A stretch of DNA of 56,423 nucleotides, from positions 1 to 56,423 of the IMG/VR virus record IMGVR_UViG_3300024344_000016, one strand, 5' to 3'. The translations under genes were made by a program, and so were the position numbers. A model generated the notes under the pieces. It searched no databases. It was not told where the DNA came from and saw only the letters and a program-made list of their open reading frames with translations. Positions 28,320 through 39,659 of this stretch are shown here, in pieces. This stretch comes from a virus. Every line of letters begins with the position of its first letter. Within the stretch, counting starts at the first letter, position 1.

Positions 28320-31300
28320 ATGGCAGAGCGATTTAATTTAACGGCACAACTACAGTTGCAGGCACCTACCAATACTGCCCAAGTAGTTAATCAGATAAAC
28401 CGAGATCTCGGCAGCGTTACCATTAACGCTAACATTCAAGCCGATGCGAAGAGTCTGTCTGCCGTTAGTGGTCAGCTTAAAGCTGTAGAAAAAACAGCGA
28501 AAAGCTCATCTGCCAGCATGAGCAATCTCAATAGAAATATTGCCGAAGCTGCCCGTAGATTTAGTGTCATAACTATCGCTACGGGTAGCTTTATCGGTTT
28601 GGCAAGAGCGATTAAAAACTCCGTAGGAGCAGCCGTTGAGTTTGAGAGAGAGATGATCCGAATCTCGCAGGTTACTGGAAACAGTGTTTCTCAGCTTGAG
28701 GGTCTCGGTAAGGAAGTTACTCGACTTTCTACTTCTCTTGGGGTTGCAAATCAAAGTCTGTTGGAGACTTCTAGAATTCTGGCTCAGGCTGGTTTAAGTG
28801 CCCTCAAGACCAAGCAGGCAATGGAAGTGTTGGCTAACACAACCTTGGCACCCAGTTTCGATAACATTATCGATACCACAGAAGGTGCCATTGCCATTCT
28901 TAACCAGTTCGGTAGGGAAGCAGCCAAAACTGGTCAAGACATACAATTCCTTGAGCAAGCTTTAGATGCAATTAACAAAGTCTCCAAAACGTTCGCCGTT
29001 GAGTCAAAAGACTTAATCACGGCAGTTAGGCGTACCGGTGGCGTGTTTGAGGCCGCTGGCGGAAGTTTAAACGAGCTTATTGCTTTGTTCACATCGGTTA
29101 GACAAACAACCCGTGAGTCTGCTGAGACGATTGCCACGGGTTTCAGAACCATCTTTACGAGATTACAACGTAAAGAAACTCTTGAGGCTCTTGACCAGCT
29201 TGGTATTTCTTTATCAGACGTTAACGGTAAGTTCATTGGCCCGCTCAAGGCTATTGAAGCTTTGGCTAACGGTCTAGCTGGCCTAGATCCAAAGGACGTT
29301 AGATTCAACGAGATCGTAGAACAGCTCGGTGGGTTCCGTCAGATTGGTAAGGTTATCCCACTGATCAAGCAGTACGCTGTTGCTGAACAGGCATTGTCAG
29401 TTGCGAACAGCTCTGCGGGCGATACCGCAAAAGACGCTCGAATTGCCCAACAATCTCTGGCCGTCCAGTTCCAGAAGGTTCGGGAGCAGTTCGATGCTCT
29501 GATGCGTAAATTTGCTGACAGCGAAACCTTTAGATCGTTAGCCGGAACAGTTCTTCAGCTTGCGGAAGCCTTCCTGAAGTTTGCCGCTGCTTTGGAGCCG
29601 ATCCTTCCCATGCTTACCACCTTGGCCGCAATCAAAATAGGTAGGTCTCTTGCTCCCGGTCTAGCTGGCCTGTTTGGTGGTGGTGGTGGCGGAAAGCAGT
29701 TTGGTGGAGTTGTCTCCAAGTTCGCTAGTGGCGGATGGGTTCCGGGCACAGGGAATCGAGATACCGTTCCCGCAATGTTGACCCCCGGTGAATTCGTCAT
29801 CAAAAAGAGCAGTGCTCGAAAACTTGGTGAGGATCAGTTGTCGTCAATGAACAGATATGCGGGCGGCGGGGTTGCTAGCCACAAGGAGGGTAAGCCCTAT
29901 GTTTCATTCGCGGACCAGACCTTTTTCAAGAAAAAGGGGCAGACGTTTCAAAACTCCCCAGCGGGCAGACGTGGTGCCACAAAGTTTAACGAAAACGATG
30001 ATTTTGCATACGATCTGGATGTCGAAAATGTTGAATTACATAAAGTCTCCCCTAAGAAGCTAGAGGGTGTTCCAGCATGGAAGGAGTACACACAAGCTGC
30101 TGCATCACTTAACGATCAGGCAAGAGGTCTGGCTTTCGAGAGAGTCTTAGAGGGGCTAGGTCGAGTCAAGCTCACTGGTGGCAATTCTAGAATTGACGGA
30201 ATGGTGGGATCTCAAGTCACCGAAATCAAGAGCTTAAGGGAGGGTCTTGATGAGTCTAATCTTAACAATAAGATGCTAGGGGCTGCGGTCAATCCTCTAA
30301 GTTCCGTAGACAGAAATGTTGTTCCCAAGCTGACCAACACTCAGCTAACAGATCAAAAAAACACTGTTGACTTGGGTAGCTTGAAGGTACTCAGGGATAA
30401 GACTAAGGTTGATCTCGACAAAAAAGCCGCAAAACAGCTAGAGGAAGGCGGGGGCAAGGGGGCCGGAAACATCAAAGGGGCACAGCTTTCTCTGGGACGA
30501 GAGCGACAAAAGATGTTTGGGGGTATTATCCAGAAGTTTGCTGAGGGTGGTATTGCTAAAGCCAAAAAGGTGGGAGCCGCTATTTTAGATGCTGATACAG
30601 CTCAACCAGATGATACCGCTAAGGTTACCGTTGACGAAATCAACAAAAAGTTTCCAGCCTTTAAAAATCTTAAAAAGGGTGCAAGCCCAGTATCTCAACT
30701 TTACAAGTCTACGGATTTCTCTATTATCCGTCAGGGCTTGAGTGAATCGACTTCAAAAAACTTCCAGCAGGCACTCAATGACGGTCTAGTATCTGGTACA
30801 GATGCAGCAACAGCCGCACTAGCATCAGACTTGGGAACGGGTGCTTCTACGATAGACGAAGGCTCCAAACAGAACTTTATTAAGACGGTACGTCCAGCTA
30901 TCCGTGGCGATCTTTTTGAGGCCGCATTACTTGCCATGAATAACAAGGGGACATTTGATGACGCACTTGATCCCGGTCGTCCTTTTGATTTTCCCGGCGG
31001 ATTAAAGGGGTCGTTAAAAGATAATTGGTCTAACATGCCAAGTGCGTGGGTAGATGCGAAATCTAGTTACGAAGCTGCGGGTAGTGCCAACATGAAAGGC
31101 AAAATTGTCAAGCAGATCGTAAATGAGCTGAAGGCTCAAGGTGTCGAGGAGATGGAGACCGGCACCAAGAAAGATAAAGAGGCTAGAGCCGCTAGAGCCG
31201 CACAACAAAACGAAGCAAAGAAAAGAAACAAGGGTGGTAGCGTATGGGGCACAGATAGTGTACCATCTCTTCTTACACCGGGCGAATACGTTATCAATAA

Positions 31301-34300
31301 ATCTTCTGCCCAAAGTATTGGTTATGGTAATCTCAACAAGATGAACCAGACGGGCGTTGCCCGTTTTGCTTCTGGTGGACTGGTTGGAGTCAGTAAATTT
31401 GCAGATGGTGGTCCAGTCGGAGGCATAGACAAAAACGTAGCCAGTGTTGATTTATCTCAGTTTGCACGGGAGGCTCCTAAAGCCGCTCAGATGATGGCCC
31501 AATTTACCAAGGGTCTTGCCGATGCATATGTTGGAATGACGGCATACAAACAAGCTATTGCAGATGGGCAGACTGAAGCAGAAGCTCTGAACATGGCCTC
31601 AAGTGCCGTTGAAAAGGCTATGTACAAGGTAGAGCCAGAATATAAGGCTGCCGTAGAGTCAAATAAAAAGTTAACAGCGGAACAAGAAAAAGTCAGCAGC
31701 ACCTCGAAGCTGCTGGAGGCCGACTTGAAGCACGAATCCGCCGCGTTAAAACAAAAAGCAGCTATAGACCAAAAATATCACGCACTTAGACAACAGGGTA
31801 TTCCGGCTCTCGCTGCTAGAAAAATCGCTATCGAAGCACAGATTGAACAAGATGGTGTTTTACTACAGACAAAACAACGCTTGAACGCTGCTCTTGCTGG
31901 TCGGGCCGACGAGGCAGCCGCTGGAGGTGGGGGTGGTGCCGGTGCCGGTGCTGGCGGTGGTGGTGGCGGTATGATGAACTTGGATTTCGGCAAGATTCAG
32001 TCGGGATTAGATAAGTTTGCGACAAAAGTTGAGGGAACAGGAAATGTTCTTAGTCGTCTCGGGTCCGGTCTGATTGGTGTATCCTTTATGGCTGGCACTC
32101 TCATTCAGGGGATGGGTGGATTGAGTGACGCTCAGAAGGAGCAAGAGCAAGCTGGGTTAGCCGCTGCCGCTGCTCACGGTGCGGTTATTTTGGAGGCGGG
32201 CAGTTTTGCCATACAATTAGCTGCCGGTACAGCTAGGATACTGTCCAACTTGGCGGCCAAGGCTCAGGAGTTTCAAGCTACTCAGGCAGCCGCCGCTTCT
32301 GAACTGGAAGAGGCTGCCGCGAATGTAGCGTCGTCATCGACAGAACAAGAGGAGGCCATCGCTAACACGCTGTCCGCTACAAGCGAGCAAGGCGAAACTG
32401 TAGCCAATACAGCGTCGACAGCGTCAGAATATGCAGAGTTTGGAGCCAACGTAGCATCTTCGGCCAGCGAAATGTCGGAAGTTGTGGCAAATGCGTCTGC
32501 TGTTACTTCTGAAATGGGTGAAGTTGCTGCCAATGCGTTAGCTGTATCTTCCGAGATGACGGAAGTTGGGGCTAATTTCCAAGCTGCAATGTCGGAAATG
32601 GCAGAAGTTGGTGCAAACGCTAAGGCGGTCATAGCGGAGATGTCTGAAGTAGCCGCCAACGCAACCGCTGTGCAAGCGGAAATGGCTGAAGTGACCGCCA
32701 ACGCAGCCGCTGTGCAAGCGGAAATGGCTGAAGTGGCTGCTAATAGTGCCGCTGTGGAAGCGGAACTGGCCGAGGTTCAGGCCAACGCTCTGGCGATCCG
32801 CACCGAGTTTCAGGAGGCCGTGGCTAATGTACAGGCCGCCAGAACGGAAGATGCCGAATCCGCAATGAACGCGATGGCGGTTAAGGCTGAAGGCGAGGAG
32901 CTTATAGCTAACCAGCAGGCGGCGAGACTTGAGTATGTCGAGGCACAGGCCAATAGTATGGCGGCGAGACTTGAGTATCAGGAAGCTGGTGCTAACCAGC
33001 TCGCTGTCCAATCAGAGCAAGCAGAGGTACAAGCCAATGCACTGTCGATACAGTCTGAGGGAACCAAGCAAGCTGCGAATGCTCGCACAGTACAAGCCCT
33101 AGCTTTCCTCATGGTAGAAGCGGCAAAGGTCAATCAGTCGTTTATGCATCTGGTTGTAGCGATGGGGGCAACATGGCAGAACATGGCCGCCCTGAGTACA
33201 CATACTCGTACTGCCGCTATTGAAAGTGCGTTTCTCGCTCAGGGTCTTGGCCTTACTATTCCAGAAATTGAAGCACTCGGAATGGCGGCGGCACAGGCGT
33301 CCAGCCAGTTGCTTACAGGCGTTGGTGGTCCAGCAGCAATTGGTGCTGCCCCAGCAGCGGGAGCCGCACCCGTTGCAGGTCATATAGCTGGACCCGCTAG
33401 GATGGCCCTTCCGGCACCCGGGGCAGGAAGTGTTCTTGGAGGAGCTGGTGCTGGAGCCGCTAGTTCAGCAGAGCTAACCGCTTTTACTGCAAATCTCACA
33501 GGGGCAAATGTGGCACTGGAACAAACCACCGCTGGTCTGCTAACCTCGAATACGACCACGAATACGAAGACGGCTGCCGATGAAACCGCAGTGGCCACGA
33601 CGGCTATGCGTGTTAACGCTGATGAGTCTTTAATTGCGGCCACTGCCGGTCTTGATACTTCTCTTATTGGCACCGAAATCAGTGCAGCTCAGGCTGCGGC
33701 TGCTCAAGAGTTTTTCGCGACAGCAACGAGCAGTACTGCTGGTACTGCCGGTCTGCTTGGCGTTAACTTAGATAAAACCGCAATCTCTACGATGCTGGCT
33801 GGTACTGGTATGGAGGGTCTATCAATTTCGGCTATGGCGGCAGAACTTGGTATGAGCGAAACTGCACTAGCATCCCTACTTATGGCAAATGCCAGTACAG
33901 CGTCAGCGACAGAACTCATGGCGGCGGGTGCCGCTGCGGATCTAATGGCGGTGGCCCAAGGTGGAGCTGCTACAAACGCTGGTTTATTGGGTGTGTCGCT
34001 GGGTAGTGCTGATGCTGCGGCTACCGCTCAAGTCGCAGGATCGACCGCATTAATAGGTGCAAACGAGGCGGCTGCTATTTCTGGTGCTCAGGTTGCCGTA
34101 AGCAACGCTGGTGTAGAAGTTACCAACGCGGGACTCATAGCTTCCGGCTTGGGGGCCTCTGTAGCACAAGATGGCGTGATGATCGCCGCAAGTGGGGCGG
34201 GTACGGCTCTGGGGGCTATTGGTGTTGAAGCGGCTGCGTTAGGTCTGGGGTTGAATGGTGCGTTAATCGCTTTATTGGCTAATTCACTCGGGGTCAATGC

Positions 34301-37300
34301 AGATACGCTTGCTAAAGCGATTAATACCGTTGTAACAGAAGCTGAAACTGCGGCCAAGACGAAAGGCGTCATAGCGACATGGATGTCGACGGCGGCGGAG
34401 AAGATGAAGGCCGCCACGATGGGGATTATGATTGTTGTGATGGTAGCGGCGATTGCTGCAATGATAGCCTATATGAAGGCGATATACCAAACAACCAAAG
34501 CTGTAACAGCGTTGAAGCAGATGGTTTCTAATCTGAACGACGCTGCGGATTCAATGATTGAAAATCTTAAAGAATCTGGCACAGGTACCGAACAAGAATT
34601 CGTTGACGCAAGAAGCGGGGCTGCTGTAAAAGAATTTGAAGCCGCCTTGATCGACTCGGCTAAGTCAAGCATAGCTTGGAGTGAAGCCGCGTATGTCGGC
34701 GGCTCCAGCCTCGCGGCGGGACTCGCTGCGATTGCTGCTGCTGGTATGTTAACGTCATGGACTGGGGTTGGCCTCGCGGTAGCTGGTGTGGCAACAGCTT
34801 TATCGTTTGCTGTAACGATGCTTTACAACAGTGGAGACAGGGTAAACAAGGCTATGGGCGAAGTTATTAGTGCCCAAGAACAGCAGGCTCGGAAGATAAT
34901 GGCAATCTCTGCTCTCCAAGCTGTCACTACGTGGAGGGCCGTCAAGGCACTTCAGGGATTTGAAACTGCCCTAAAGGACGCGGAAAAAGCTGGGCTGTCT
35001 GCCGGTGAACAGCTAATAGTAATAGGCAACGAAAGTAAGGGTCTGGTCGAGGAATACGAGGCTGGCCAGCAGAGAATGGCGGCTGCGAGTACGGGGCGGG
35101 CAGATTTACAGAAAGAGTTGGAAAGTAGGGGTGTCCTTACGGCAGGGGGAACGGAGATAGAAGGGGCAGACACAACAGGTCAGGAAGAAAACCTTGCGGC
35201 CTACAAAGAGATAACTAAGCAAGAGCAAGAAGCCCGCAAAGCACAAAACGATTTGCTAAATCAAATCCTTGCTCAAGAGGCACAGGTTCGTCGAAAACTC
35301 CAAACCGCTGTTGGAGAGCTGGTATCTGACCTGTCCAAAACAGCTCCTCAGAAACTCAATAAAGTAACCAATTTTGATCAACTACTGAAAGCGGATAAAG
35401 ACTTCCAAGACCAATATAAGAAGGGTATCGAGACAGTCAATGCCGCTATTGACCTGTCATTCAAAGCCCGCATAGAGGAAGCTAAAAAACTTGGCCAAAC
35501 AACAAAGGCCGCAACTCTAGAAGCCCAGAGAGACAAACAGAAAGCCATTGCTGATGTTCAGGTTCGCAAGGCTGCGATGGAGAGGGTGCTTGCCGAACAA
35601 AAGGCCAGACAGGCGATTCTCCGTAATGAGATAGTCATGCGTGCTCAGAGAAGAGCAATAGAAGATGTAAACACCACGATGGAAGGTTTTAACAACACTC
35701 TTCTCGGAGCCACCAATACTGCCGCTGCCTTTGCTGCTATCGACCCAACGATTGCTCTCGCTCAGGGGAAGGGTCCAGACGCCGCCACGTTCGATACAGA
35801 CGCTCTGTCCGTTCCCTTTAGCCAGATCGATCCCAAGATTCTTGACAAGGCTCTGGAACAGGGTGTGTCTGGAATAACAATGGGTATTGGTTCTAATGTG
35901 CCCGGTGGTGGTGACGCTGTCGACAAGGAAATTGAAGATAGAGCCAACCGCATAAAAAAGAGGGTACAGACTGTTCATGGGCTTGTTGACGCAATTCCCG
36001 ATGCCTTGGGCAAACTTGTCACGCAACCAATGCCCATCGATACCGCTGGTGTCAAAGCTATGCAGAGTAAGCTGTTCAAAGATATAAATAAGGCTGTCGG
36101 CGGCGGCTTGACGACGGGTGGCGTAGCCAATGAGCTGGGCACCATTGTACAAGAAGGCATCAATGAGCTGATTGACAAGGGAGAGCCTATCACTATGGAG
36201 GCTATCCAAAATCTCGTTGGTGATATTGAAGGTTTCGGAGAAGAGCAACTTGAAGCGTTCAAGAGAAGTATTGAAATTCAGAATAAGTTCTTGACTGAAA
36301 TCGACAAGATCAATTCTGCGATAATTGAAGCCGAAATGAAAGTTGCGGAAGCTTTTGGAAAAGTGGCAGACACCCGCTCTCGCGTGGCAGACAGGCAAGA
36401 ATCTGCCGTTCAGGGGGGCCGTGTATCGACAACCGCCACAGATATTCGTGCCGCTAGACAAAGAAGAGAGCGTGGAAGAAGGGCCGGAGCACAGCAGAGA
36501 CTCGGTACAGATGCGTTGGCTGCGGGAGCCAGAGCTGGCGATGTGAATGCGACGACGAACGCACTCAAACAGCTTCAGGCACAAGCCAAGCAAAATGCCG
36601 ACGCAGCAAGAACCGAAACCGATGCACTGAAGAAGGCGGGACTAAATGATGCGGCAAAAAGAAATGCAGCCGCAGCAAACCGTGCAACCAAGGAATTGGA
36701 GCGGCTTGCAAACCAAAGTGCAAGGGCCGCCGATATAGAGAAGGAGCTTGCTGCCGAAAGAGCGAGCAGAAAGCAGGTCGGACAGGTAGTTGAAGATTTT
36801 GCCTTTGGCTCTGATGAGGAGCGGGTAAATATGGGGCAAGCGTTTGCAACCACGCAGCTCGCCATCAATCAGGGCGGCATACAGAATGCGACATCGGAAG
36901 AAAGAGCACAAGTTGCTTCGGTTCTGGACAAGCTGAGTGACGTGGAAAATGTTGGGGGCAGTGGTAAAACGGGTGCTGAACTTAAAGCCCAGTTTGCAAG
37001 AGACGAGGCTGTTGCTCAGGGAATAGATCCAGCAATTGCTGATGCACTTCTTAAGCCTAGCAAGTCAGAACAACAACTTCTCAAAGAACTCAACCAGCTT
37101 GGTAAAGATGAGATTGCGGCTGCGAACGCTTTGGCTGAAAACGCTAAATCTCAGGTTCAGCTTTTGGAGGATATTAGGGATGAGTTGAAGAACAACTTTG
37201 AGAGGGATATTAACCGAGGACAAAGACAGGGTACACAGGCCAGTAATGCAACACAGCAGAGAAAGCAAGACGCGAAGGTTCTCAAGGCATACAATAAAGT

Positions 37301-39659
37301 TACAAAGGCTGTAGAAAAAACGTCAAAAACAGTAGAGAATCTAGACAAGACATTAACTACTCTTCAGGCTGAGTTTGCAGCACTTACCGAAACACTCAGA
37401 CAGCTCAATGATCCAGACAGCAAAGAAGCTAAGAAAGCGAAGGAACAAGATCAGGACGAGTTCGCGGCTTCGGCTGGTGGACAGGCACTTGCCACTATAA
37501 AAGACCAAGAGCAGGAAATGCGTTTTTCTGCCAATCAGGAGGGTGAGGGGTTTGTGGATGCCACAATGATAGCAGAAGAGAGGACGAAGCGTAGAGGTGG
37601 CGAGACCATCTCGCAGGAGGAGGGACAAGCGGCAAGAGATGAGAGAGCACGGATAATGACTCCAGAAGGTGAGGGCTTCACTGAAGGTAATATGGAGCTG
37701 GCAGACATGGGTACACCAGAGATCGCTCGGGCAGTTGCGGCGAGCATGGAGGGCAGTAGGGTGGCCGCAAGATCCGCTATAGGCACAGAGGAAGAAATAG
37801 CGGCAAGTCCAGAGCTACAGAAGCAGGCAGCGGCTTTGGAAGCCCAATTCCAGAGGGCGGTTGAGTTCGTTACCCAGAGACTCACTGGTATCCAAGAAGG
37901 AACCATAGAGTCCCAGTCTGGTGTTTCCGCAGGTAGCGGAGAAATTGCATCCGGTGATTTTGCTGGTGAGTTCGCGGACGGTATGACGATGTTCAGACAG
38001 GGAGCTGAAACCATCCTGAAGGCAGCCGAAGCTAACAAGGTTGCGGAAGAAAAAAGGAAACAGGCCGAAAAGCAGGCTGCCGATACCGCCGCAGGCAAGG
38101 CTCGGGGAGGTCTTATTTACAGAGCCGCTGGTGGAAGTATCTTCCAACCAAAGGGTACAGATACAGTTCCGGCTATGTTGACGCCCGGCGAGTTCGTGAT
38201 TCGTAAATCCGCAGTTGACAGGATTGGTGTTGGTGCTCTCTCTGCATTAAATAACGGTGTTGCTTATCACGCACAGGGTGGTGTTGTGGGTCTGCCAGAA
38301 GCGGGTGCTGCTGGACACGCCTTTATGGAGACTGTTGCTCAGGGAAATAAGGGTAATATGATCAAGTCTCTTCAGGTGGGCTTTGGTATGGGTGGTGCAG
38401 ACGCAAACAAAGCGTGGAAATACTTGGTTTTCCTGTCCAAGAAAGGTAAACTTGACTCTTCAAAGCTTGCTGGCTATAAGGACTTGGACGCTTCTCTGGA
38501 TATACTAAGGGCGACCGATGCACTGGAGTCGATTGGTGCCGGTTTAGGGGCAACTATTTTCAAACCGCTACAGGTGAACGACGTATACCCACTTGCCGCA
38601 GGTGCGTGGCAACCCAAAAAGGGTCCAACCGACGAGGCCAGAAAAAAGGTCCAAACCGTTATATCTAGATCACAGGCTCGTAGAGACAAGCTTAATAAGC
38701 TGTTGACTGATCTGACGAACGTGCAGGGCACGAATAGTGCGGGGCAGTTATTTGCTGGCGAGCTGGTATTTCAGGGCGGGTTTACAGCACAAAATATGTT
38801 CGATCAAATCCTCGACATATCTACTGATGTCGGTGCCGAACTTGTCCGCGAAAGAGGTAGATATGCCAGTATGGATACACAGTTCAAGCAGGCTGGTGAG
38901 ATTGATCCGAAGGGGAAGCCCACGGTAGCGGCGGTGGCTGCATGGACAAACCTGACTGGCGGTGGTGGTTTTGGGCCAATTTCCCAAGCGGCCAATGTTC
39001 AGACAGCGGCGGAGACAGCCAAAACCGCCAGAGACAAGGCGGCTCTGAAGGAGGATGCCACAGAGGGTATGGACGCCAGAGAGAGAAGAGCTTGGGAATG
39101 GCTGAACACTGCGGGAGTTTTGACACTAGCTAAAGGTGGATCTGTAGGTAACGTTCTCGATAGTGTTCCTGCGATGCTTACGCCGGGCGAGTTTGTCATG
39201 AGTCCCGAAGCGGTTAAAAAGCATGGTGTTGGGTACATGCGTGACCTCAACAGGGGTCGTGTTCCGGGCTTCAGGAGAGGTGGACTTGTTGGCCGTGGAG
39301 TTGCTTACAGAGCTAATGGAAGTTCAGGCCCAGAGTCTGGCGGTGGTGCGGTCTTGCAGATAGATCCCAGTCTTCTTCAGGGAGTTTTAGATAATTTTAA
39401 TGCACTCTTTAGCCAAAACCTCGATAATATAGTATCAAGCTTCTCTATGGTTAGTTCGTCAATGGATAACTTGGCGACAGCACTTGGGCAGCCCATCACA
39501 ATGAATCATAACTTCTCAGGAGACATGTCACTTGCCTTTAAGATCGAGAATGCCGATCATATCAAGAAGAGCTTTGCCGAAGCGATCACCCCAACACTGA
39601 CTAAGATTATAAGCGAAGAAGTTGACAAGAAGCTTAACGACATGAAAAATAACCCATAA
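28320..39659 (+). CDS. tail tape measure protein
   Basis: 3779 residues, the length ruler of the tail. Residues 1-420 carry the usual helical tape-measure domain (FEREMIRISQVTGNSVSQLE; FRTIFTRLQ). Four TPGEF modules (VPAMLTPGEFVI-like) start near residues 481, 979, 3281 and 3615. Segments near 600-645 and 860-925 look like PD-(D/E)xK nuclease folds. Residues 1326-1591 are nineteen 14-residue helical repeats. Hydrophobic stretches near 2030-2055 and 2134-2168 may cross the host membrane during DNA entry. The end is a short coiled segment. SD AGAAGG. Confidence 0.9.
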   Translation: MAERFNLTAQLQLQAPTNTAQVVNQINRDLGSVTINANIQADAKSLSAVSGQLKAVEKTAKSSSASMSNLNRNIAEAARRFSVITIATGSFIGLARAIKNSVGAAVEFEREMIRISQVTGNSVSQLEGLGKEVTRLSTSLGVANQSLLETSRILAQAGLSALKTKQAMEVLANTTLAPSFDNIIDTTEGAIAILNQFGREAAKTGQDIQFLEQALDAINKVSKTFAVESKDLITAVRRTGGVFEAAGGSLNELIALFTSVRQTTRESAETIATGFRTIFTRLQRKETLEALDQLGISLSDVNGKFIGPLKAIEALANGLAGLDPKDVRFNEIVEQLGGFRQIGKVIPLIKQYAVAEQALSVANSSAGDTAKDARIAQQSLAVQFQKVREQFDALMRKFADSETFRSLAGTVLQLAEAFLKFAAALEPILPMLTTLAAIKIGRSLAPGLAGLFGGGGGGKQFGGVVSKFASGGWVPGTGNRDTVPAMLTPGEFVIKKSSARKLGEDQLSSMNRYAGGGVASHKEGKPYVSFADQTFFKKKGQTFQNSPAGRRGATKFNENDDFAYDLDVENVELHKVSPKKLEGVPAWKEYTQAAASLNDQARGLAFERVLEGLGRVKLTGGNSRIDGMVGSQVTEIKSLREGLDESNLNNKMLGAAVNPLSSVDRNVVPKLTNTQLTDQKNTVDLGSLKVLRDKTKVDLDKKAAKQLEEGGGKGAGNIKGAQLSLGRERQKMFGGIIQKFAEGGIAKAKKVGAAILDADTAQPDDTAKVTVDEINKKFPAFKNLKKGASPVSQLYKSTDFSIIRQGLSESTSKNFQQALNDGLVSGTDAATAALASDLGTGASTIDEGSKQNFIKTVRPAIRGDLFEAALLAMNNKGTFDDALDPGRPFDFPGGLKGSLKDNWSNMPSAWVDAKSSYEAAGSANMKGKIVKQIVNELKAQGVEEMETGTKKDKEARAARAAQQNEAKKRNKGGSVWGTDSVPSLLTPGEYVINKSSAQSIGYGNLNKMNQTGVARFASGGLVGVSKFADGGPVGGIDKNVASVDLSQFAREAPKAAQMMAQFTKGLADAYVGMTAYKQAIADGQTEAEALNMASSAVEKAMYKVEPEYKAAVESNKKLTAEQEKVSSTSKLLEADLKHESAALKQKAAIDQKYHALRQQGIPALAARKIAIEAQIEQDGVLLQTKQRLNAALAGRADEAAAGGGGGAGAGAGGGGGGMMNLDFGKIQSGLDKFATKVEGTGNVLSRLGSGLIGVSFMAGTLIQGMGGLSDAQKEQEQAGLAAAAAHGAVILEAGSFAIQLAAGTARILSNLAAKAQEFQATQAAAASELEEAAANVASSSTEQEEAIANTLSATSEQGETVANTASTASEYAEFGANVASSASEMSEVVANASAVTSEMGEVAANALAVSSEMTEVGANFQAAMSEMAEVGANAKAVIAEMSEVAANATAVQAEMAEVTANAAAVQAEMAEVAANSAAVEAELAEVQANALAIRTEFQEAVANVQAARTEDAESAMNAMAVKAEGEELIANQQAARLEYVEAQANSMAARLEYQEAGANQLAVQSEQAEVQANALSIQSEGTKQAANARTVQALAFLMVEAAKVNQSFMHLVVAMGATWQNMAALSTHTRTAAIESAFLAQGLGLTIPEIEALGMAAAQASSQLLTGVGGPAAIGAAPAAGAAPVAGHIAGPARMALPAPGAGSVLGGAGAGAASSAELTAFTANLTGANVALEQTTAGLLTSNTTTNTKTAADETAVATTAMRVNADESLIAATAGLDTSLIGTEISAAQAAAAQEFFATATSSTAGTAGLLGVNLDKTAISTMLAGTGMEGLSISAMAAELGMSETALASLLMANASTASATELMAAGAAADLMAVAQGGAATNAGLLGVSLGSADAAATAQVAGSTALIGANEAAAISGAQVAVSNAGVEVTNAGLIASGLGASVAQDGVMIAASGAGTALGAIGVEAAALGLGLNGALIALLANSLGVNADTLAKAINTVVTEAETAAKTKGVIATWMSTAAEKMKAATMGIMIVVMVAAIAAMIAYMKAIYQTTKAVTALKQMVSNLNDAADSMIENLKESGTGTEQEFVDARSGAAVKEFEAALIDSAKSSIAWSEAAYVGGSSLAAGLAAIAAAGMLTSWTGVGLAVAGVATALSFAVTMLYNSGDRVNKAMGEVISAQEQQARKIMAISALQAVTTWRAVKALQGFETALKDAEKAGLSAGEQLIVIGNESKGLVEEYEAGQQRMAAASTGRADLQKELESRGVLTAGGTEIEGADTTGQEENLAAYKEITKQEQEARKAQNDLLNQILAQEAQVRRKLQTAVGELVSDLSKTAPQKLNKVTNFDQLLKADKDFQDQYKKGIETVNAAIDLSFKARIEEAKKLGQTTKAATLEAQRDKQKAIADVQVRKAAMERVLAEQKARQAILRNEIVMRAQRRAIEDVNTTMEGFNNTLLGATNTAAAFAAIDPTIALAQGKGPDAATFDTDALSVPFSQIDPKILDKALEQGVSGITMGIGSNVPGGGDAVDKEIEDRANRIKKRVQTVHGLVDAIPDALGKLVTQPMPIDTAGVKAMQSKLFKDINKAVGGGLTTGGVANELGTIVQEGINELIDKGEPITMEAIQNLVGDIEGFGEEQLEAFKRSIEIQNKFLTEIDKINSAIIEAEMKVAEAFGKVADTRSRVADRQESAVQGGRVSTTATDIRAARQRRERGRRAGAQQRLGTDALAAGARAGDVNATTNALKQLQAQAKQNADAARTETDALKKAGLNDAAKRNAAAANRATKELERLANQSARAADIEKELAAERASRKQVGQVVEDFAFGSDEERVNMGQAFATTQLAINQGGIQNATSEERAQVASVLDKLSDVENVGGSGKTGAELKAQFARDEAVAQGIDPAIADALLKPSKSEQQLLKELNQLGKDEIAAANALAENAKSQVQLLEDIRDELKNNFERDINRGQRQGTQASNATQQRKQDAKVLKAYNKVTKAVEKTSKTVENLDKTLTTLQAEFAALTETLRQLNDPDSKEAKKAKEQDQDEFAASAGGQALATIKDQEQEMRFSANQEGEGFVDATMIAEERTKRRGGETISQEEGQAARDERARIMTPEGEGFTEGNMELADMGTPEIARAVAASMEGSRVAARSAIGTEEEIAASPELQKQAAALEAQFQRAVEFVTQRLTGIQEGTIESQSGVSAGSGEIASGDFAGEFADGMTMFRQGAETILKAAEANKVAEEKRKQAEKQAADTAAGKARGGLIYRAAGGSIFQPKGTDTVPAMLTPGEFVIRKSAVDRIGVGALSALNNGVAYHAQGGVVGLPEAGAAGHAFMETVAQGNKGNMIKSLQVGFGMGGADANKAWKYLVFLSKKGKLDSSKLAGYKDLDASLDILRATDALESIGAGLGATIFKPLQVNDVYPLAAGAWQPKKGPTDEARKKVQTVISRSQARRDKLNKLLTDLTNVQGTNSAGQLFAGELVFQGGFTAQNMFDQILDISTDVGAELVRERGRYASMDTQFKQAGEIDPKGKPTVAAVAAWTNLTGGGGFGPISQAANVQTAAETAKTARDKAALKEDATEGMDARERRAWEWLNTAGVLTLAKGGSVGNVLDSVPAMLTPGEFVMSPEAVKKHGVGYMRDLNRGRVPGFRRGGLVGRGVAYRANGSSGPESGGGAVLQIDPSLLQGVLDNFNALFSQNLDNIVSSFSMVSSSMDNLATALGQPITMNHNFSGDMSLAFKIENADHIKKSFAEAITPTLTKIISEEVDKKLNDMKNNP
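32295..33092. repeat. 14-residue repeats in tape measure
   Basis: Nineteen in-frame units of 42 bases with the pattern SEM-x-EV-x-ANA-x-AV (two heptads per unit). Units 9-11 are nearly identical at the DNA level. This looks like expansion by slippage or unequal recombination in a coiled-coil rod. Confidence 0.8.

What the first reader, a model, noticed from the sequence alone, without database searches (positions are those of the whole stretch)
30106..31100. Nuclease-like segments inside the tape measure
Residues about 600-645 have E, then RIDGMVG, then TEIKS: a PD-(D/E)xK-type core. Residues about 860-925 have FEAALL, FDFPGG and WVDAKSS, a second core of the same kind. Each follows a TPGEF module. 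If active, DNA-cutting domains would travel into the new host with the tail, aiding entry or attacking host DNA.
Basis: partly seen in the sequence, partly recalled or inferred. Interest (0 to 1): 0.68.

Follow-up and report, generated by a model that had tools for sequence, protein, structure and literature searches.

The report
Swappable nuclease slot in tape-measure protein
The giant tail-ruler protein of this marine virus carries two DNA-cutting-type domains in a fixed slot that related viruses fill with constantly exchanged but almost always nuclease-like cassettes, which suggests that the tail delivers a swappable enzyme along with the viral DNA.

Summary
The motifs are real. The 3,779-aa tape-measure protein (TMP) holds E607/D626/E635-x-K637 and E867/D890/D912-x-K914. 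Alone they prove little: a loose version is common in shuffled sequence. Relatives decide it. I collected about 150 related TMP loci. The segment lies between two TPGEF modules, in a slot that every closed relative fills (121 of 121, at least 174 aa). In 87 aligned segment-2 domains (identity to the window mostly 12-36%), the six most conserved columns are G, E, D, D/E, K, K; 79 keep E-[DE]-[DE]-x-K. The segment-1 family keeps E and D in 14 of 14. Of 99 unique closed slots, 91 carry a PD-(D/E)xK-like domain. Other TMPs carry a staphylococcal nuclease in the same slot.

Cargo is exchanged cleanly: two contigs share 10,123 bp at 99.9% up to the slot, then have BLAST-unrelated cargo, then resume at the second module. 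Host entry, DNA target and activity are inferred. Nearest precedent: Tme, a TMP-like injection-system effector with an EndA-type nuclease.

The parts
28320..39659 (+). Tape-measure protein gene, 3,779 aa
   Evidence: ORF; N-terminal match to PHROG tape-measure families, best 4.2e-24
29706..29870 (+). TPGEF module 1 (aa 463-517), 5' boundary of the cargo slot
   Evidence: conserved in relatives and the point where homology breaks in cargo exchanges
29931..30455 (+). Segment 1: PD-(D/E)xK-like domain (aa 538-712); E607, D626, E635-x-K637, K651
   Evidence: alignment A6, 14 sequences: E 14/14, D 14/14, trailing K at least 90%
30507..30551 (+). Degenerate half-module QKMFGGIIQKFAEGG (aa 730-744) between the two tandem domains
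   Evidence: sequence shows directly; same kind of joint in tandem slots of L095, L102, L107
30570..31154 (+). Segment 2: PD-(D/E)xK-like domain with its N-terminal lead (aa 751-945); G863, E867, D890, D912-x-K914, K928
   Evidence: HMM family, 87 aligned domains with conserved catalytic set; AlphaFold model of aa 792-954, pLDDT 79.4
31233..31349 (+). TPGEY module 2 (aa 972-1010), 3' boundary of the cargo slot
   Evidence: homology resumes here in cargo exchanges
34404..34496 (+). Strongly hydrophobic, membrane-spanning-like stretch of the TMP (aa 2029-2059)
   Evidence: Kyte-Doolittle scan
34764..34832 (+). Second hydrophobic stretch of the TMP (aa 2149-2171)
   Evidence: Kyte-Doolittle scan
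38106..39269 (+). TPGEF modules 3 and 4 (aa 3288 and 3621) bounding a second, C-terminal slot of about 330 aa, cargo unidentified here
   Evidence: no Pfam hit

Best explanation
Residues ~538-945 of the tape-measure protein are two tandem PD-(D/E)xK-like nuclease domains sitting in a cargo slot bounded by TPGEF modules. SHOWN: the slot is a fixed position in a large group of mostly marine phage TMPs, always filled and nearly always with a nuclease-like domain (several PD-(D/E)xK-like subfamilies, sometimes a staphylococcal nuclease); the catalytic-type residues are the best-conserved columns; and the cargo is replaced as a unit between otherwise near-identical phages, with breakpoints at the modules. 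INFERRED: the domain is packed in the tail lumen as part of the TMP, leaves with the TMP at infection ahead of or with the genome, refolds in the envelope or cytoplasm, and cuts DNA there, most likely DNA of the host or of resident or rival elements, early in infection. Rapid exchange of cargo around a constant catalytic core suggests an arms race with host or rival factors that recognise or inhibit the cargo.
For: Catalytic set conserved while everything else drifts. An unrelated nuclease fold sits in the same slot: L157 gives NCBIfam EcnA 1.1e-5 and NucI 2.1e-4 and tblastn hits, most of them to annotated phage nucleases (best 2e-6); L012 is 43% identical to it; all four such cassettes keep D-G-D, R, D and E. 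Of 99 unique closed slots, 91 carry a PD-(D/E)xK-like domain and 3 an SNase-like one; no empty slot in 121. Clean cargo exchange at module boundaries. The domain was not found outside TMPs in the loci searched. The AlphaFold model has E in a helix, D at a strand, D-A-K in a strand and K in the next helix. Precedents: Tme, a TMP-related effector with nuclease activity (PMC11126660); association of the lambda TMP with inner-membrane entry proteins (PMC13190303).
Against: No match to a curated nuclease family or solved structure for either segment. No Foldseek or VIA match for the segment-2 model. The hhalign comparison of the two segment families gives only 16.7% probability, although E = 0.0015. 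Some relatives have lost the Lys (L070, L100, L134, L146, L147; L082 and L089 in the segment-1 type). No experimental evidence of activity or delivery, and no cultured phage found with the domain.
Confidence: 0.72

Rival explanations
1. The slot nuclease acts on the phage's own DNA: it trims or processes the genome end that abuts the TMP in the tail, or resolves damage during injection, rather than attacking the host.
For: The TMP lies in the tail lumen next to the DNA end (established knowledge). The slot is always filled, as expected of a structural or assembly need.
Against: An own-DNA function should be conserved, not swapped between BLAST-unrelated sequences in phages sharing 10 kb at 99.9% identity. 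Different nuclease folds substitute for each other.
Confidence: 0.1
2. The nuclease is a homing-type selfish element: it cuts cargo-less or differently loaded TMP alleles and spreads by recombination through the conserved modules.
For: Fixed insertion site with conserved flanks and frequent replacement. PD-(D/E)xK homing enzymes exist (own knowledge).
Against: No empty allele among 121 closed slots. All cassettes are in frame, with no sign of protein splicing. The cassettes are extremely diverse and include SNases and metallopeptidase-like domains.
Confidence: 0.07
3. The domains keep a nuclease-like fold but serve only as DNA-binding or structural filler of the tape.
For: No activity data. 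A minority of relatives lost the catalytic Lys.
Against: The acidic/Lys set is the best-conserved feature, and SNase catalytic-type residues are kept in the replacement cassettes.
Confidence: 0.08
4. The motif is a chance arrangement in a low-constraint region and no nuclease is present.
For: The loose motif is common in shuffled sequence. No database or fold match.
Against: Conservation across 87 and 14 sequences, and a recognisable SNase in the same slot.
Confidence: 0.03

Closest known systems
Tme, tape-measure-related effector of the Streptomyces davawensis contractile injection system (PMC11126660)
   Same: TMP-like carrier fused to an endonuclease domain and loaded into a phage-tail-like tube
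   Different: Bacterial injection system, not a virion; EndA-type nuclease at the C terminus; carries DUF4157; no swap slot between TPGEF modules described
Sle1-type TMP-related effectors with variable functional domains (PMC13277306)
   Same: TMP-like carrier with exchangeable functional domain
   Different: C-terminal domains of other function in actinobacterial injection systems; here the variable part is internal, at the end of the conserved N-terminal TMP region, and nearly always nuclease-like
TMPs with muralytic domains such as SPbeta YomI (annotated transglycosylase / TMP) and mycobacteriophage TMPs (own knowledge)
   Same: Tape measure carrying an enzyme that helps entry; distant N-terminal homology to YomI (about 23% identity)
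   Different: Cell-wall enzymes rather than nucleases; no hypervariable cargo slot known to me
PD-(D/E)xK nuclease superfamily
   Same: E ... D ... (D/E)-x-K, and a trailing K, conserved
   Different: No significant match to any Pfam, NCBIfam or PDB member; fold not confirmed by structural search
SNIPE, host nuclease acting at genome injection (PMC13190303)
   Same: A nuclease associated with the TMP at the site of genome entry
   Different: SNIPE is a host defence protein that associates with the TMP; here the phage TMP itself carries the nuclease
Polymorphic toxin systems
   Same: Constant delivery part, exchanged catalytic cargo
   Different: No clearly co-exchanged immunity gene within the compared flanks (about 10 kb upstream in L036/L037; about 7 kb downstream in L041/L051)

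Membership tests
PD-(D/E)xK nuclease superfamily | Conserved acidic residue, then D, then (D/E)-x-K | tested here: met
   79/87 segment-2 domains; E and D 14/14 in the segment-1 family
PD-(D/E)xK nuclease superfamily | alpha-beta-beta-beta-alpha-beta core fold | tested here: inconclusive
PD-(D/E)xK nuclease superfamily | Significant match to a known member family | tested here: not met
   No Pfam, NCBIfam or PDB match; only a sub-threshold NOV_C match for relative cassette L022 (E 0.11)
PD-(D/E)xK nuclease superfamily | Metal-dependent nucleic-acid cleavage | not testable with these tools
   needs a biochemical assay
Tail tape-measure protein | Very long tail gene with N-terminal similarity to known TMPs, in the structural gene cluster | tested here: met
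   3,779 aa; PHROG TMP families 4e-24 to 8e-11; terminase, portal and major head protein upstream
Staphylococcal nuclease (cargo of relatives, not of the window) | DGD...R...D..E plus K-Y/F-G-R catalytic set and family match | tested here: met
   L157: NCBIfam EcnA 1.1e-5, Pfam SNase 0.009 (below its cut-off), tblastn 2e-6 with most hits annotated as nucleases; DGD/R/D/E kept in 4/4; the K-Y/F-G-R stretch kept in L157 and L012 only
Polymorphic toxin / effector-immunity system | Cognate immunity gene exchanged with the cargo | tested here: not met
   L036/L037 99.9% identical over 10.1 kb up to the slot; L041/L051 differ upstream by one 103-aa ORF about 4 kb away and keep about 91% identity over 7.1 kb downstream; flanks beyond these were not compared
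Homing endonuclease | Empty (cargo-less) alleles exist | tested here: not met
   0 of 121 closed slots shorter than 174 aa
TMP-derived injection-system effectors (Tme type) | DUF4157 core domain | tested here: not met
   No DUF4157 hit in a Pfam scan of the whole protein

The most novel reading that the evidence does not exclude
A large group of marine tailed phages uses the tape measure as a programmable injected weapon: a slot between two TPGEF modules that is always loaded, usually with a nuclease, and is exchanged as a cassette by recombination at the modules without a linked immunity gene, so that infection begins with protein delivery of a fast-evolving DNase.
Probability: 0.5. Interest if true: 0.87.

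Novelty: new variant of a known kind. Interest (0 to 1): 0.76.

Why it matters
TMPs are among the largest and least understood phage proteins, and a recent survey could not confirm genuine recent domain mosaicism in them (PMC10684548). Here the exchange is shown at DNA level with breakpoints at defined modules. If the domains are active and delivered, the tail brings an enzyme with the genome, which would be a route for host takeover or phage-phage conflict and a natural template for protein delivery by tails. It also gives a concrete site, sequence boundaries and catalytic residues for testing the old question of whether TMPs enter the cell and act there.

Tried and rejected
Direct searches for the window segments found no relative in IMG/VR and only the TPGEF module in cultured phages, so I moved to the conserved N-terminal TMP region. 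Pfam, PHROGs, NCBIfam and PDB-sequence searches with the segments and family profiles gave no nuclease match; scattered weak hits (peroxidase, AsnRS, one Rad52 and similar) were rejected as chance. Foldseek and VIA gave nothing. An alignment of both segments together put segment-1-only relatives onto segment 2 and was not used for folding. The iterated segment-1 profile drifted into the segment-2 family; I did not use it as proof that the two are homologous. One Pfam call, which failed, held a mistyped sequence; it was discarded and redone with locus references. A first slot extraction picked the wrong module and was corrected. Homing endonuclease and polymorphic-toxin filings were considered and not adopted (empty alleles absent; no clear co-exchanged immunity gene). 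The SNase profile A5 found no PDB relative, nor did L157 alone, so the SNase call rests and the catalytic residues.

Full report
WHAT IS IN THE WINDOW. The window is a 56,423-base virus record of a tailed phage, with terminase, portal and major-head-protein matches upstream and a 3,779-aa tape-measure protein (TMP) at 28320-39659. The two cores lie in tandem between TPGEF (aa 488) and TPGEY (aa 986); only the first directly follows a full module, and the second is preceded by a degenerate half-module (aa 730-744). The loose E-D-(D/E)xK pattern is frequent by chance (39 in the real TMP, 29.5 on average in shuffles); a stricter version occurs only at these two places (0.30 expected, P of two or more 0.053). 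The motif alone therefore proves little.

RELATIVES. In these TMPs the region after the N-terminal domain is a slot between two TPGEF-type modules. All 121 closed slots hold at least 174 aa.

CARGO. An HMM grown from segment 2 reached 54 sequences (53 relatives plus the window) and 87 domains in the enlarged set. Identity to the window is mostly 12-36%, yet the six lowest-entropy columns are G863, E867, D890, K928, K914 and D/E912; 79 of 87 domains keep E-[DE]-[DE]-x-K. The segment-1 family (alignment A6, 14 members) keeps E607 and D626 in all and K651 in at least 90%; [DE]-x-K is kept in most, two members (L126, L150) have Arg and two (L082, L089) have lost it. Of 99 unique closed slots, 91 carry a PD-(D/E)xK-like domain (segment-1, segment-2 or a third, motif-only type), 3 an SNase-like domain, 1 an HExxH peptidase-like domain and 4 none of these; two of those four (L022, L088) show another E...GMDF...IEAK arrangement. 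Several slots are tandem like the window's.

INDEPENDENT SUPPORT FROM ANOTHER FOLD. In L157, L012/L013, L087 and L090 the slot holds a cassette with staphylococcal-nuclease residues (DGD, R, D, E; alignment A5). L157 matches NCBIfam EcnA (1.1e-5) and NucI (2.1e-4) along the domain, and hits phage proteins most of which are annotated as nucleases or endonucleases (best 2e-6). The Pfam SNase match is below its cut-off, and L087 and L090 rest on residues alone. A second, unrelated nuclease family in the same slot is hard to explain unless the slot is for nucleases.

EXCHANGE. TMP N-termini that are nearly identical carry cargo without BLAST similarity: L036/L037 (100% N-terminal identity), L041/L051 (98.4%), and across fold classes L012 (SNase) with L018 (PD-(D/E)xK-like; 82.6%). 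At DNA level L036 and L037 share 10,123 bp at 99.9%, lose similarity at the slot start and regain it at the second module; L035/L037, L041/L051, L118/L123, L110/L154 and L012/L018 break in the same way. No neighbouring gene was clearly exchanged with the cargo in the compared flanks; the one difference is a 103-aa ORF present in L041 and absent in L051 about 4 kb upstream, next to a tail-protein gene. The coverage downstream of the slot is short in several pairs.

STRUCTURE. No sequence match to a known nuclease was found for either segment. Superfamily membership is therefore probable, not proven.

MECHANISM. Shown: position, conservation, replacement by another nuclease fold, and cassette exchange. 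Inferred: delivery with the TMP, refolding after ejection, and cutting of host or rival DNA. The inference draws on established roles of TMPs in genome entry, on association of the lambda TMP with inner-membrane entry proteins (PMC13190303), and on Tme, a TMP-related injection-system effector whose endonuclease domain is active (PMC11126660). The TMP has two strongly hydrophobic stretches, as expected of a membrane-inserting TMP. Fast exchange around a constant catalytic core suggests conflict, but what drives it was not tested.

NOVELTY. None of the papers listed or read in six library searches was seen to describe nuclease domains in phage TMPs or a cargo slot bounded by TPGEF modules; only a few were opened and the library is open-access only, so this is not proof of absence. 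The TPGEF module itself is widespread in cultured phages, mostly in genes annotated as TMPs (1,051 records). The finding extends known TMP-enzyme fusions and Tme-like effectors to a swappable, nuclease-dominated slot inside virion TMPs: a new variant of a known kind.

Noticed in passing
L064, L159, L160 (first slot); L030 C-terminal slot: HExxH metallopeptidase-like cargo (LAHELGHAVD and similar; SprT-like / DUF6782 below cut-off) in the same kind of TMP slot.
   Followed up: partly
L148:13136-14170: After two nuclease-like domains the slot continues with a P-loop (GPSGSGKTT) and a DVDRTL HAD-like stretch, reminiscent of an end-healing kinase-phosphatase; L051:11945-12457 has a similar HAD-like stretch.
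   Followed up: partly
L039:11309-11971: An extra upstream slot with an acetyltransferase-looking sequence (GGGGRALYDAAMQQATKQGGSLVSD); no Pfam hit.
   Followed up: partly
L076 (TMP of at least 4,120 aa): Long segment after a module contains a stretch that looks like a protein-kinase/HipA-type fold (VVKPTIDAKTALAEVRATQIAREV).
   Followed up: no
window:38181-39180: A second slot between TPGEF modules 3 and 4 near the TMP C terminus; in relatives its content is also highly variable and mostly unidentified.
   Followed up: partly
MN698243.1 (Pelagibacter phage HTVC104P), gene gp81 between portal and capsid: A TPGEF-type module near the C terminus of a gene that is not annotated as the tape measure, perhaps an internal head protein.
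   Followed up: no
window about 32280-33000: The TMP has a run of imperfect repeats (AEMAEVxANAxAV), coiled-coil-like, inside the tape region.
   Followed up: no
window:52649-53767 (-): Aminotransferase (phrog_3139, 3.9e-36) in a block of minus-strand genes at 49-56 kb, possibly sugar-modification genes.
   Followed up: no
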